64,000 nucleotides of DNA from Clostridium sp. BJN0013. GTDB taxonomy: Bacteria; Bacillota; Clostridia; Clostridiales; Clostridiaceae. Of this stretch, positions 28,877 to 32,463 are shown one piece after another. Under the pieces are notes generated by a model. The model did not search any database. It was given only the letters and a program-made list of their open reading frames with translations, and was not told where the DNA came from. The translations under genes and the position numbers were made by a program. The stretch's first letter is position 1. Each line of letters begins with the position of its first letter. The stretch covers positions 434,001 through 498,000 of the forward strand of contig NZ_CP162495.1 of assembly GCF_040939125.1 (NCBI RefSeq), read 5' to 3'.

Positions 28877-28905
28877 TTGATAATCATTTTTATATGTGTT
28901 ATACT
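28877..28905 (+). promoter_or_regulatory. Consensus sigma-A promoter of the resistance cluster
   Basis: TTGATA (28877-28882), exactly 17 bases, then TATACT (28900-28905). It lies 31 bases before the first leader peptide start codon. Confidence 0.8.
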
Positions 28906-28935
28906 GAAACAAATATTTAGAAAAGAGGTATAAGA

Positions 28936-28974
28936 ATGTTTATTGTTAAAATGAGACTCCGTTATTTAGTTTAA
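28936..28974 (+). CDS. Leader peptide with MRLR macrolide-stalling motif
   Basis: Twelve codons, MFIVKMRLRYLV, then TAA. AGAGG sits 7-8 bases before the ATG. MRLR is the arrest motif of ErmD-type (MTHSMRLR) and MefA (MTASMRLR) leaders, where a macrolide in the exit tunnel stalls the ribosome at Arg-Leu-Arg. The last codons (TTATTTAGTT, 28962-28971) can pair perfectly with AACTAAATAA at 28982-28991, so a stalled ribosome would prevent that hairpin and change folding downstream. It controls the methyltransferase at 29255 by inference. Confidence 0.75.
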   Translation: MFIVKMRLRYLV

Positions 28975-28993
28975 TACAAATAACTAAATAAAA

Positions 28994-29042
28994 AATAAGG
29001 TAAAAAAACCTATAGTTTTAGGTTTATTTGTTGTACCTTATT
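28994..29042 (+). promoter_or_regulatory. Nested attenuator hairpin after the first leader
   Basis: Outer arms AATAAGGTA (28994-29002) and TACCTTATT (29034-29042) pair perfectly. Inside them AAACCTA (29006-29012) pairs with TAGGTTT (29019-29025). It directly follows the hairpin formed with the leader's end and so is the next switchable structure in the transcript. Confidence 0.7.
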
Positions 29043-29154
29043 TTCGGATTCTTACAATGAACATTCATATACTTTTATCGTATCCTATTATAGACATTAA
29101 GTGTGACTGCCTTAGTGTAGTTTTTGATGTCCTATATTTTTTATAGAGATATAA

Positions 29155-29193
29155 GGGTTGCAGGTGAATTATGTTCATTTGCAACCCTTTTTT
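29155..29193 (+). terminator. Attenuator terminator before the methyltransferase gene
   Basis: GGGTTGCA (29155-29162) pairs with TGCAACCC (29180-29187), followed by TTTTTT. It lies between leader and gene, about 60 bases before the ATG at 29255, so it must be read through for expression. This is the expected place for an antibiotic-relieved terminator. Confidence 0.8.
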
Positions 29194-29254
29194 GCGTTGA
29201 ATGGTCATTTTCAAGAATTCACATCGAATTAATTAATGAGGTGAATTTGAGAAT

Positions 29255-30148: not shown

Positions 30149-30213
30149 ATTGATCACTAGATAGAGGAGGTTTGTATAAGACTTAAATGAAAATTTTTGA
30201 AGGAGGAATATTT

Positions 30214-30234
30214 ATGTATTATATTTTCATATAA
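30214..30234 (+). CDS. Leader peptide MYYIFI for the ABC-F gene
   Basis: Six codons preceded by a perfect AAGGAGG 7 bases upstream. It closely resembles the MsrD leader peptide MYLIFM, which stalls ribosomes in the presence of macrolides and induces msr(D). The coding sequence itself contains the hairpin ATTATAT / ATATAAT (30218-30235). The hairpins that follow are annotated separately. Confidence 0.75.
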   Translation: MYYIFI

Positions 30235-30246
30235 TCCTTTCTGCTT

Positions 30247-30296
30247 AAATCGCAGGGTTTTCCCTGCGAACAGGTAAATGAAAACATGCGATTTTA
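30247..30296 (+). promoter_or_regulatory. Alternative hairpins of the ABC-F leader
   Basis: CGCAGGG / CCCTGCG (30251-30268) is a compact strong hairpin. AAATCGCA (30247-30254) can instead pair perfectly with TGCGATTT (30287-30294). The two structures share CGCA, so they exclude each other, as in an attenuation switch. They sit between the MYYIFI leader and the ABC-F start codon. Confidence 0.7.
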
Positions 30297-30312
30297 GACA
30301 GGAGGAAAGAAA

Positions 30313-31776
30313 ATGGAATTAATAATAAAAGCAAAAGATCTTCGTATTGAATACACAGGGCGTGAGGTTTTAGATATAGATGAATTAGAGTTATATCACT
30401 ATGACCGTATTGGTTTGGTTGGAGCAAATGGGGCAGGAAAAAGTACCTTACTAAAGGTGCTTTTGGGGGAATTAACTTCACCGGGATGTAAAATCAATCG
30501 TCTTGGAGAATTTGCCTATATCCCTCAGTTGGATGAAGTAACTTTGCAGGAGGAAAAAGATTTCGCACTTATAGGCAAACTTGGTGTTGGGAAATTAGAG
30601 GTACAGTCCATGAGCGGTGGTGAAGAAACAAGACTTAAAATAGCACAGGCTCTTTCAAAGCAGGTACATGGTATTTTGGCGGATGAACCTACCAGTCATT
30701 TAGACCGTGAAGGAATAGATTTTTTAATCGGACAGTTAAAATATTTTTCTGGTGCATTGCTAATTATCAGCCATGACCGCTATTTCCTTGATGAGGTGGT
30801 AGATAAAATATGGGAACTGAAAGACGGTAAAATCACGGAGTATTGGGGGAACTATTCTGATTATCTTCGTCAGAAAGAGGAAGAATATAAAAGCCAGGCT
30901 GTAAAATACGAAAAGTTTGTTGAAGAACGTGACCGACTGGAACAGGCGGCTGAGGAAAAACGAAAACAAGCACAAAAAATAGATCAGAAAGCAAAAGGTA
31001 CTTCTAAGAAAAACAAATCTGAAAGCGGTGGACGTTTGGCTCATCAGAAAACAATGGGAAGTAAGCAAAAAACATTGTATAATGCTACTAAGTCTATGGA
31101 ACATAGGATTGCAGCTTTGGGGAAGGTGGAAGCTCCTGAAGATATTCGGACTATTCGTTTCCATCAGAGTAAAGCATTGGAGCTTCATAATCCATATCCG
31201 ATTTGTGGGACAGAAATTAATAAAAGTTTCGGGTATAAAGTGTTGTTTGAAAAGGCATCTTTTAGCATCCCACTTGGAGCAAAAGTGGCGCTGATCGGTG
31301 GTAATGGTGCAGGAAAAACAACTTTGATCCAAATGATCTTAAACCATGAAGATGGTATTTCGATTTCACCTAAGGCTGAAATAGGTTACTTTGCCCAAAA
31401 TGGTTATAAATATAACCGTAATCAAGAAGTTATGGAATTTATGCAGGAAGATTGTGATTATAATGTGTCAGAAATCCGTTCAGCGCTGGCCTCCATGGGT
31501 TTTGTACAAAATGATATTTGCAAAAGGTTATCTGTTTTAAGCGGCGGCGAAATTATTAAATTGCTGCTGGCTAAAATGCTAATGGGTAGGTATAATATCT
31601 TGTTAATGGACGAACCGAGTAACTTCCTTGACTTGCCAAGTTTAGAGGCTCTGGAAATGCTGATGAAAGGGTATGCTGGAACCATTGTGTTTAGCACCCA
31701 CGACAAACAACTGCTTGATAATGTGGCTGATGTGATTTATGAAATCAAAGATAAGAAATTGAACCTAATTCGATAA
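30313..31776 (+). CDS. ABC-F ribosomal protection protein (Msr/CplR-like)
   Basis: A 487-residue protein with two ABC domains and no membrane segment. Walker A motifs are GANGAGKST (about residue 37) and GGNGAGKTT (about 336), with signatures MSGGEETRL and LSGGEIIKL. The interdomain linker, about residues 190-265, is rich in Lys/Glu/Gln and is the part that reaches the ribosomal P-site tRNA region in antibiotic-resistance ABC-F proteins. Such proteins dislodge macrolides, lincosamides, pleuromutilins or streptogramin A from the ribosome. The length equals that of Msr(D). The start is ATG 30313 after GGAGG. Expression is probably controlled by the MYYIFI leader. Which drugs are covered cannot be read from the sequence. 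Confidence 0.88.
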   Translation: MELIIKAKDLRIEYTGREVLDIDELELYHYDRIGLVGANGAGKSTLLKVLLGELTSPGCKINRLGEFAYIPQLDEVTLQEEKDFALIGKLGVGKLEVQSMSGGEETRLKIAQALSKQVHGILADEPTSHLDREGIDFLIGQLKYFSGALLIISHDRYFLDEVVDKIWELKDGKITEYWGNYSDYLRQKEEEYKSQAVKYEKFVEERDRLEQAAEEKRKQAQKIDQKAKGTSKKNKSESGGRLAHQKTMGSKQKTLYNATKSMEHRIAALGKVEAPEDIRTIRFHQSKALELHNPYPICGTEINKSFGYKVLFEKASFSIPLGAKVALIGGNGAGKTTLIQMILNHEDGISISPKAEIGYFAQNGYKYNRNQEVMEFMQEDCDYNVSEIRSALASMGFVQNDICKRLSVLSGGEIIKLLLAKMLMGRYNILLMDEPSNFLDLPSLEALEMLMKGYAGTIVFSTHDKQLLDNVADVIYEIKDKKLNLIR

Positions 31777-31821
31777 ATTATTTTATCTGTATATAAGAGA
31801 TGAAAAAGGAGGTAGCATCTT

Positions 31822-32463
31822 ATGATAGGACCAGATAAGAAGAAACTATATCCAAATGAAAGTATTAAGACAGTATGCTATATAAGTAATTTGCCTAAAA
31901 GATCCAATGTTGAGATCGGAGATTACACTTACTATAGTGATAATAAAAAATCTCCAGAGAAATTTTATGATAATATAGAGCACCACTATGAATTCTTGGG
32001 GGATAAACTTATTATAGGCAAGTTCTGTGCAATTGCAGAGGGTGTTAAGTTTATCATGAATGGTGCAAACCACAGAATGGATGGAATTACAACTTATCCT
32101 TTCAATATCTTTGGTAGTGGTTGGGAAAGGGTCACTCCAACAGTAGAACAGCTGCCTTTTAAGGGAGATACAGTGATTGGCAATGATGTATGGATAGGTC
32201 AAAATGTAACTATTATGCCGGGAGTTAAAGTAGGTGATGGTGCGATTATTGCTGCTAATTCTACTGTAGTAAAAAGTATTGAACCGTATACAATTTATGG
32301 AGGCAACTCGGCCAAATTAATTAAGAAACGCTTCAGTGATGAAAAAGTTGAACTTTTACTAAAGCTTCAATGGTGGAATTGGAAAGAAGACAAGATATTT
32401 AATAATCTTGAAAAGTTAACATCGGAAGATGGTTTGGATCAATTAATGAAAGAATATTGTTGA
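31822..32463 (+). CDS. vat: Vat-family streptogramin A O-acetyltransferase
   Basis: A 213-residue left-handed beta-helix acetyltransferase. Hexapeptide repeats (IGKFCAIAEGV, TVIGNDVWIGQNVTIMPGV, VGDGAIIAANSTVV) and the Vat signature MNGANHRMDG with catalytic His84 are present. It also has YPFNIFGSGWE and the C-terminal WWNW motif of the family. It transfers acetyl from acetyl-CoA to streptogramin A (virginiamycin M-type) drugs. It lies 45 bases after the ABC-F gene behind its own AAGGAGG, so it is probably co-transcribed and adds a drug-modifying arm to the cluster. The exact Vat subclass is not assignable by eye. Confidence 0.88.
   Translation: MIGPDKKKLYPNESIKTVCYISNLPKRSNVEIGDYTYYSDNKKSPEKFYDNIEHHYEFLGDKLIIGKFCAIAEGVKFIMNGANHRMDGITTYPFNIFGSGWERVTPTVEQLPFKGDTVIGNDVWIGQNVTIMPGVKVGDGAIIAANSTVVKSIEPYTIYGGNSAKLIKKRFSDEKVELLLKLQWWNWKEDKIFNNLEKLTSEDGLDQLMKEYC

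What the first reader, a model, noticed from the sequence alone, without database searches (positions are those of the whole stretch)
28877..32463. Macrolide-responsive resistance operon with two different stalling leaders, built like mefA-msrD but with an rRNA methyltransferase in place of the pump
Seen: a consensus promoter, leader MFIVKMRLRYLV, overlapping hairpins and a terminator, an RlmA-type methyltransferase, then leader MYYIFI with mutually exclusive hairpins, an ABC-F protein and a Vat acetyltransferase. Known: MRLR leaders (ErmD, MefA) and MYLIFM (MsrD) stall ribosomes with macrolides and relieve attenuation. Inferred: one cluster combining target methylation, ribosome protection and drug acetylation, each of the first two steps with its own drug sensor. 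I know of no described operon pairing an RlmA-type enzyme with both leader types.
Basis: partly seen in the sequence, partly recalled or inferred. Interest (0 to 1): 0.9.

Follow-up and report, generated by a model that had tools for sequence, protein, structure and literature searches.

The report
Two-sensor macrolide resistance operon
An unnamed clostridial genome carries three antibiotic-resistance genes in a row behind two different built-in drug-sensor sequences; each part is of a known kind, but the combination and the RNA of the first sensor are a new variant.

Summary
Window 28877-32463 has a promoter-like site, leader MFIVKMRLRYLV, a strong terminator, an RlmA-type methyltransferase, leader MYYIFI, an Msr-type ABC-F gene and a Vat gene, all on one strand. 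Leader 2 is the published msr(D) attenuator with two residues changed. Leader 1 is not a mefA leader: two covariance models of it miss mef leaders, and a stalled ribosome is not predicted to break its terminator, whereas the same procedure predicts this for mefA. Instead a conserved helix forms on stalling and competes with a hairpin that hides the rlmA ribosome-binding site; predicted exposure is modest, and clear in three of five leaders. Its arrest motif sits at residues 7-9, as in the Bacillus subtilis TlrB leader. The same leader RNA occurs at eight sites in 7 of 225 genomes of the order, before rlmA or hflX (one copy decayed). RlmA plus Msr behind an ermK-like leader also exists on Priestia plasmids, apparently assembled independently. 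Published spectra suggest a division of labour: RlmA for tylosin-type macrolides, MsrD for 14/15-membered ones, Vat for streptogramin A. New variant of a known kind; no drug response was tested.

The parts
28877..28905 (+). promoter-like site, TTGATA-17-TATACT with TG before the -10
   Evidence: 10 of 12 matches; scan as a whole at chance level; homology of loci L019, L020, L042 begins at it or up to 45 nt before it
28936..28974 (+). leader 1 ORF, MFIVKMRLRYLV, R7-L8-R9
   Evidence: R7-x-R9 in 7 of 7 undecayed members of the leader family
28925..29077 (+). leader 1 RNA domain 1 (P1: arginine codons with 29046 onward; P2; P3 with pause-type hairpin)
   Evidence: covariance model hits; 91.7% of cells paired versus 38-51% when slid, on an alignment fitted to the structure
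29046..29066 (+). 5' arm of helix A, also the 3' arm of P1
29153..29195 (+). intrinsic terminator of leader 1
   Evidence: conserved stem with compensatory changes
29199..29220 (+). 3' arm of helix A, overlapping the strand that hides the rlmA ribosome-binding site
29215..29248 (+). hairpin that hides the rlmA Shine-Dalgarno sequence (29238-29244)
   Evidence: (98% of cells paired)
29255..30148 (+). RlmA-type methyltransferase, 297 aa
30214..30234 (+). leader 2 ORF, MYYIFI, UAA stop (msrDL type)
30239..30261 (+). leader 2 terminator hairpin and T run; its 5' arm also pairs with the msrD Shine-Dalgarno region in the predicted fold
30313..31776 (+). Msr(D)-type ABC-F ribosome protection protein, 487 aa
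31822..32463 (+). Vat-family streptogramin A acetyltransferase, 213 aa

Best explanation
A drug-inducible resistance operon with two ribosome-stalling sensors in series, probably on one transcript. Leader 1 (MFIVKMRLRYLV) stalls a macrolide-loaded ribosome with R9 in the A site. This keeps the 5' half of the long P1 stem from pairing, so its 3' half (29046-29066) pairs with 29199-29220 (helix A). Helix A takes away the strand that hides the rlmA ribosome-binding site, and rlmA is translated more. RlmA then methylates 23S rRNA, most likely at G748, against tylosin-type 16-membered macrolides. Leader 2 (MYYIFI) is an msrDL sensor: a 14/15-membered macrolide stalls the ribosome at its stop codon, covers most of the first arm of the terminator hairpin and gives msrD. 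MsrD protects from 14/15-membered macrolides, and the Vat downstream inactivates streptogramin A. Shown here by sequence and computation: the genes, leaders, predicted folds, conservation and modular history. Inferred: drug sensing, drug specificity, methylation site, and how RNA polymerase passes the leader 1 terminator, which remains unexplained.
For: R7-x-R9 in 7 of 7 undecayed members, the register of the TlrB leader MIIQFIRYR (PMC6851288, passages). Helix A: 97.9% of cells paired, 2 of 19 pairs with compensatory change; duplex -13.5 to -16.9 kcal/mol, at most 3 of 1000 letter shuffles of the 3' arm as good, and better than every other 22-nt stretch between the arms, in 5 of 5 rlmA leaders. 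Its predicted probability rises on stalling (16-nt footprint) in 5 of 5: 0 to 0.72, 0 to 0.61, 0 to 0.45, 0.30 to 0.58, 0 to 0.68. The SD-hiding hairpin has 98% of cells paired. Leader 2: hairpins near-identical to 5 MYLIFM leaders and 2 MYYIFI leaders; at the published stall register the ribosome covers most of the first terminator arm. MsrD does not protect E. coli from tylosin or spiramycin (PMC10314930, section 6 read); RlmAII gives B. subtilis tylosin resistance (PMC6851288, passages).
Against: No drug response, transcript or methylation was measured. Predicted opening of the rlmA ribosome-binding site on stalling is modest: mean unpaired 0.18 to 0.42 in the window, 0.17 to 0.39 in G011a and 0.17 to 0.40 in G197, but only 0.12 to 0.20 in C. 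bovifaecis and 0.19 to 0.21 in G069; it falls with other assumed footprints in the window (0.33 at 19 nt) and G011a (0.24 and 0.26). The leader 1 terminator stays formed in the stalled fold in 7 of 7 members, so transcription should still be largely stopped. The SD hairpin shows no double changes (0 of 10 pairs), and arms swapped between species pair about as well. Only five intact rlmA leaders were available, all related. Three more distant RlmA homologues of the same clade (L011-L013) show no such leader. In leader 2 the residue L3, essential in MsrDL, is Tyr, and the TTNTTT pause site is missing. NCBIfam gives the methyltransferase no family at its cut-off (171.2 versus 303 for RlmA G745).
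Confidence: 0.5

Rival explanations
1. mefA-type double transcription attenuation: leader 1 works by terminator/antiterminator exchange as in mef(E), with leader 2 as the second lock.
For: MRLR motif; similar leader length (341 nt from the assumed start versus 327 nt in mef(E)) and order of stems; motif TAGGYTTWTTTGTTGTRC shared with mef leaders, the 4 exact hits in 291 class genomes being this leader and three mef leaders; a weak R1 hit (21.4 bits, E 0.049) on a mef-like leftover in L021; a strong terminator is present.
Against: Neither model finds an intact mef leader (R1 at E 10; R2 at E 1; default filters). With the same folding procedure, local terminator pairs go 15 to 0 in phi1207 mef but 17 to 17 in the window, and the terminator stays formed in 7 of 7 leader-1 RNAs. 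Arrest register differs (R7-x-R9 versus R6-x-R8).
Confidence: 0.25
2. The leaders are relics: rlmA, msrD and vat are expressed constitutively or from outside read-through, and drug control has decayed in this strain.
For: The leader 2 terminator is predicted weaker here (-5.1 kcal/mol) than in three others (-7.9); its pause motif is gone; a sister copy in G011 is visibly decayed; the element sits beside broken mobile genes.
Against: Leader 1 frame, SD, arrest motif and stems are intact in the window, and all three resistance ORFs are open.
Confidence: 0.15
3. The methyltransferase is a housekeeping RlmA unrelated to resistance that happens to lie before msrD.
For: In Listeria and Enterococcus, RlmA homologues lie among ordinary metabolic and tRNA-modification genes.
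Against: RlmA is accessory in these relatives (7 of 59 genomes at E 1e-10, own included), has the arrest leader in 5 of the 8 members of its clade, and is paired with Msr in Priestia and with a Mef-like gene in G197.
Confidence: 0.08

Closest known systems
Bacillus subtilis yxjB/tlrB (RlmAII) tylosin-inducible leader (PMC6851288, passages)
   Same: RlmA-type enzyme; short leader peptide with R-x-R at residues 7-9; terminator plus SD-hiding hairpin; no overlapping antiterminator identified
   Different: Leader RNA here is 341 nt from the assumed start, not 177 nt; its terminator begins about 180 nt beyond the predicted edge of the stalled ribosome and cannot be covered by it; the enzyme lies in a clostridial clade; msrD and vat follow
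Streptococcal mef(A/E)-msr(D) operon (PMC4335068, passages; PMC10314930, passages and sections 6 and 8)
   Same: Two leaders in series; leader 2 RNA and MsrD (81.9% identical to phi1207 MsrD); MRLR motif in leader 1
   Different: RlmA in place of the Mef pump; leader 1 RNA not matched by a common model; no terminator exchange predicted; leader 2 reads MYYIFI instead of MYLIFM; vat added
Priestia plasmid rlmA-msr operons (pBMV_1, pBEH5; annotated records)
   Same: MRLR leader, then RlmA, then an Msr-family ABC-F protein
   Different: ermK-like leaders MTHFMRLRFPTLNQ and MTHAMRLRFPTLNK; RlmA 39% and Msr 45-46% identical; gap of about 45 nt without room for an msrDL leader; no vat in the stretches shown. 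Apparently an independent assembly
Listeria hflXr attenuator rli80 (PMC6310831, passages)
   Same: R-L-R leader before a ribosome-acting resistance gene; two clostridial hflX genes carry the window's leader 1 RNA
   Different: Gene product and RNA; in G212 and G216 the leader 1 type module stands before a second 14-codon RLR leader

Membership tests
RlmA family methyltransferase | N-terminal zinc ribbon C-x2-C, C-x3-H and SAM-binding methyltransferase domain | tested here: met
   PF21302 Zn_ribbon_RlmA 40.4 versus 27 bits and Methyltransf_31 49.3 versus 27; ligands present in 21 of 21 aligned rows; best PDB match 1p91 RlmA, E 1.1e-28
RlmA family methyltransferase | NCBIfam equivalog for 23S G745 or exception models for G748 (ChrB, Erm32, MyrA) | tested here: not met
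   171.2 versus 303; 86.2 versus 620; 72.9 versus 550; 66.2 versus 625. Not filed as any of these
RlmA(II)/TlrB | methylation of 23S G748 and tylosin resistance | not testable with these tools
   needs primer extension or mass spectrometry
Msr(D) ABC-F | NCBIfam Msr family cut-off; identity to MsrD | tested here: met
   744.9 versus 680 bits; 81.9% identical to phi1207 MsrD, 87.5% to G037; closest PDB sequence 5zlu, E 2.6e-205
Vat streptogramin A acetyltransferase | NCBIfam Vat_ABCDEFH cut-off | tested here: met
   315.6 versus 300 bits; below the cut-off of each named Vat allele model listed (A, C, D, E, F, H, I), so an unnamed Vat
msrDL attenuator (leader 2) | hexapeptide with UAA stop, terminator whose 5' arm the stalled ribosome covers | tested here: met
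msrDL attenuator (leader 2) | drug-sensing residues L3 and I4, and TTNTTT pause | tested here: inconclusive
   I4 kept, L3 is Tyr, pause motif absent; function untested
mefA leader RNA (leader 1) | found by a common covariance model | tested here: not met
   no intact mef leader at E 10 or E 1, default filters; a mef-like leftover in L021 scores 21.4 bits, E 0.049, with R1 only
mefA leader RNA (leader 1) | stalled ribosome predicted to break the terminator | tested here: not met
   15 to 0 local pairs in phi1207 mef, 17 to 17 in the window
tlrB-type leader (leader 1) | R-x-R at residues 7-9 and SD-hiding hairpin | tested here: met
tlrB-type leader (leader 1) | stalling frees the SD sequence | tested here: inconclusive
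   predicted unpaired fraction about doubles in 3 of 5 leaders and barely changes in 2 of 5
tlrB-type leader (leader 1) | terminator stem lies under the stalled ribosome | tested here: not met
   predicted ribosome edge about 28973, terminator starts 29153

The most novel reading that the evidence does not exclude
Each resistance gene carries a sensor tuned to the drug class that it defeats, wired in series: a tylosin-type sensor before RlmA, and a cladinose-type sensor (erythromycin, azithromycin) before MsrD, on one transcript. Since the first lock also lies upstream of msrD, the operon would act as a graded logic circuit, and leader 1 would be the founding member of a small stackable clostridial attenuator RNA family that is moved in front of rlmA and hflX.
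Probability: 0.25. Interest if true: 0.7.

Novelty: new variant of a known kind. Interest (0 to 1): 0.5.

Why it matters
In the published tests MsrD leaves 16-membered macrolides such as tylosin unprotected, and RlmAII covers tylosin. Pairing them under arrest leaders, apparently in two independent assemblies (clostridial and Priestia), suggests that mixed macrolide exposure selects for recombining sensors and effectors as modules (speculation). By NCBIfam's curated cut-offs an Msr and a Vat would be reported here, and the methyltransferase would be missed. The leader 1 RNA matches no Rfam family at gathering scores and offers a small testable system for how nascent-peptide sensors acquire drug specificity.

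Tried and rejected
Considered and dropped: (1) leader 1 as a mefA leader. (2) An antiterminator by pairing of 29059-29066 with the 3' arm of the terminator: not kept in G069 or in the hflX leaders (by eye), and absent from the minimum-energy stalled fold. (3) The terminator sequence as a family mark: a near-copy follows an unrelated ORF in L048, so it looks like a common clostridial terminator. (4) An internal promoter for msrD: promoter-like matches at 29429-29456 (inside rlmA) and 30197-30225 (overlapping leader 2) lie upstream of msrD, but the scan is at chance level, so none is proposed. (5) Naming the organism: searches of window flanks in plasmids and phages gave no host; it is only known to share a GTDB family with Clostridium bovifaecis (contig length of G202 equals that of CP046522.1). 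(6) viral contigs gave nothing with the methyltransferase or the leader pattern. (7) The pause-type motif with up to one mismatch is noisy: 35 hits in 30 of 291 genomes against 22 for the reversed pattern; only the 4 exact hits are used. (8) The 180 published tlrB leaders are in supplementary files that could not be opened, so I cannot say whether leader 1 is among them. (9) Weak model hits at 25-30 bits (6 genomes) lie at other leaders and were not counted as members.
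Full report
1. What is there. Reading 28877 to 32463 on the plus strand: a promoter-like pair TTGATA-17-TATACT with TG before the -10, leader 1 MFIVKMRLRYLV at 28936-28974, a 17-pair terminator stem at 29153-29189 with T run, a 297-codon ORF at 29255-30148, leader 2 MYYIFI at 30214-30234, a 487-codon ABC-F ORF at 30313-31776 and a 213-codon ORF at 31822-32463. The gaps rlmA to leader 2, leader 2 to msrD and msrD to vat are 65, 78 and 45 nt, so one transcript is likely. 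The promoter scan as a whole is at chance level (23 found, 24.0 expected); two further matches lie upstream of msrD, one inside rlmA and one overlapping leader 2.

2. The proteins. The methyltransferase has the RlmA zinc ribbon and a SAM domain, and its nearest solved relative by sequence is E. coli RlmA, 1p91. It reaches no NCBIfam cut-off. In a tree of 21 RlmA sequences it falls in a clostridial clade of 8 (support 98/100), apart from the Priestia pair (98/96); 8 of 18 inner branches are open. The gene is accessory here: 7 of 59 genomes carry a match at E 1e-10, own genome included. The ABC-F protein passes the Msr cut-off (744.9 versus 680) and is 81.9% identical to MsrD of phi1207; the third is a Vat (315.6 versus 300), below the cut-off of each named Vat allele listed.

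3. Leader 1 as an RNA family. A DNA search of 206 genomes of the family found the leader beyond the window in G011 (twice), G202 (= C. bovifaecis), G069, G197, and, over its first domain, upstream of hflX in G212 and G216; G182 keeps a remnant beside a truncated rlmA. 75 of 206 genomes had some match at E 0.001; the other rows are under 100 nt and were ignored. A covariance model built without G197 found G197 at 80.5 bits. A second model with it gave 8 sites in 7 of 225 order genomes at E 0.001, own genome and the decayed G011 copy included (stricter filters, which lose weak matches). Three more distant RlmA homologues of the clade, L011 to L013, have no such leader. All seven undecayed leader peptides have R at residues 7 and 9 with a hydrophobic residue between (RLR, RFR, RLR, RFR, RIR, RFR, RFR). 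Domain 1 keeps 91.7% of cells paired against 38-51% when slid, on an alignment fitted to that structure; four pairs have double changes (2.5 expected, reached in 78 of 500 shuffles), and the covariation score is reached in 3 of 500. The sequences are few and related, so this is moderate support. Rfam shows no family here at gathering scores.

4. The switch. In the drug-free fold the leader codons pair with 29046 onward, and the rlmA ribosome-binding site is paired. With the stretch up to the edge of a ribosome stalled at R9 left out, 29046-29066 pairs with 29199-29220 (helix A), which includes the strand that hides the binding site. Helix A holds in 5 of 5 intact rlmA leaders: 97.9% of cells paired, two pairs with double changes (17 of 500 shuffles), duplex energies -13.5 to -16.9 kcal/mol. 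Its probability rises on stalling in 5 of 5 at the 16-nt footprint. The effect on the binding site itself is modest: mean unpaired 0.18 to 0.42 (window), 0.17 to 0.39 (G011a), 0.12 to 0.20 (C. bovifaecis), 0.19 to 0.21 (G069), 0.17 to 0.40 (G197), and it depends on the assumed footprint. In the window's own stalled fold the site is partly held in another hairpin, and with a start at 28977 the hiding hairpin returns. Arms swapped between species pair about as well, so co-adaptation is not shown. The terminator is the open problem. The same procedure dissolves the phi1207 mef terminator (15 local pairs to 0) but leaves all seven leader 1 terminators formed. [quoted passage not shown] Unlike tlrB, the terminator is too far from the stalled ribosome to be covered. 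A hairpin followed by TTTATTTGTTGT, with TTNTTT motifs, is kept in the window; the motif TAGGYTTWTTTGTTGTRC occurs exactly in 4 of 291 class genomes, in the window and three mef leaders. Against a full separation from mef, R1 gives 21.4 bits (E 0.049) to a mef-like leftover in G037.

5. Leader 2. The msrD leader region matches 5 msrD loci with MYLIFM and two clostridial ones with MYYIFI. The published terminator energy of -7.9 kcal/mol (PMC10314930, passages) is reproduced for phi1207, G037 and the decayed G011 copy; the window gives -5.1. Its first arm can also pair with the msrD Shine-Dalgarno region. In MsrDL the residues L3 and I4 are essential, and of the drugs tested erythromycin and azithromycin induce (section 8 read). 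Here L3 is Tyr and the TTNTTT pause motif is absent, so the specificity of leader 2 may differ.

6. History. Homology splits into two blocks: promoter, leader 1 and rlmA (from 28832, 28867 or 28877, by locus, to about 30154), and msrDL, msrD and vat (30176 to 32474). G011 holds leader 1 plus rlmA alone, a mef-msrD pair, and a decayed copy of the whole arrangement in which rlmA is reduced to its first codons, the arrest motif is lost and msrD is interrupted. In G197 rlmA is followed by a Mef-like gene that is split in two frames. In a Streptococcus suis phage a Vat gene follows a Vgb-like gene, the latter below its curated cut-off.

7. Is the pairing new? In 398 Bacillota genomes, 37 (own included) have an RlmA match at E 1e-35, with 37 matches outside the window. 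I scanned the 29 given as loci: none has an Msr of 30% identity or more within the about 1.5 kb held (three have ABC matches of 21-29% over about 205 aa), and five have a leader ending in R-x-R; two further basic ORFs fit the loose pattern. Priestia plasmids pBMV_1 and pBEH5 do have rlmA followed by an Msr gene, behind MTHFMRLRFPTLNQ and MTHAMRLRFPTLNK. Both proteins are distant from the window's (39% and 45-46%), so the pairing probably arose at least twice. I found no paper describing it in the searches; these cover open-licence PMC papers only, and apart from the papers cited I saw listings.

8. Mechanism and verdict. The best reading is two drug sensors in series with a division of labour. 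In E. coli MsrD raises resistance to erythromycin, azithromycin and, less, telithromycin, but not tylosin or spiramycin (section 6 read). RlmAII gives tylosin resistance, and its B. subtilis leader answers tylosin and not erythromycin (passages). The register of leader 1 matches that leader. That each sensor is matched to its gene is inference. Overall: a real operon that looks inducible, a new variant of a known kind.

Noticed in passing
L046 and L047 (G216, G212), upstream of hflX: The leader 1 type module stands before a second 14-codon leader (MILKACIFSIRLRA, MILKACIFCVRLRG) and then hflX: two R-x-R leaders in series before a ribosome-splitting GTPase.
   Followed up: partly
L101, L108, L109 (Priestia plasmids pBMV_1 and pBEH5): rlmA-msr operons with ermK-like MRLR leaders, annotated as putative RNA methyltransferase and Msr family protein.
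   Followed up: partly
L064, L065, L066, L068, L069 (five genomes of the same family): A six-codon ORF (MIITTC, MIITIC and variants, read by eye) with a pause-type hairpin precedes a conserved protein of about 400 aa; the one scanned (L065) has no NCBIfam match at E 1e-15. It looks like another drug or stress attenuator.
   Followed up: partly
L089 and L084: Short leaders MTPSNC and MKL with a similar motif before genes that look like ABC-F genes by eye.
   Followed up: no
L045 (G197): rlmA with leader 1 followed directly by a Mef-like efflux gene split in two frames.
   Followed up: partly
window 26471-28366: Group II intron whose reverse transcriptase is split into two frames (26471-27040 and 27119-28252), with the Rfam intron match at 28272-28366.
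   Followed up: no
window 28413-28801: Remnant of a recombinase; 133 nt of it are 74% identical to the recombinase gene upstream of the Vgb-like and Vat genes in S. suis phage phi-SsuFJNP3_rum.
   Followed up: no
window 44055-46670: 871-aa protein with PPDK_N and PEP-utilizer domains, 84.8% identical in DNA to a cyanobacterial plasmid gene called phosphoenolpyruvate synthase; from recall the layout fits a rifampin phosphotransferase.
   Followed up: no
window 7253-12315: Stretch with GC up to 48%, ABC permease plus two-component genes, 83% identical to a Paraclostridium sordellii plasmid; from recall it resembles peptide-antibiotic resistance modules.
   Followed up: no
window 29153-29195: The terminator sequence recurs almost unchanged elsewhere in clostridial genomes (for example L048, after an unrelated ORF), as if a repeated terminator element.
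   Followed up: no
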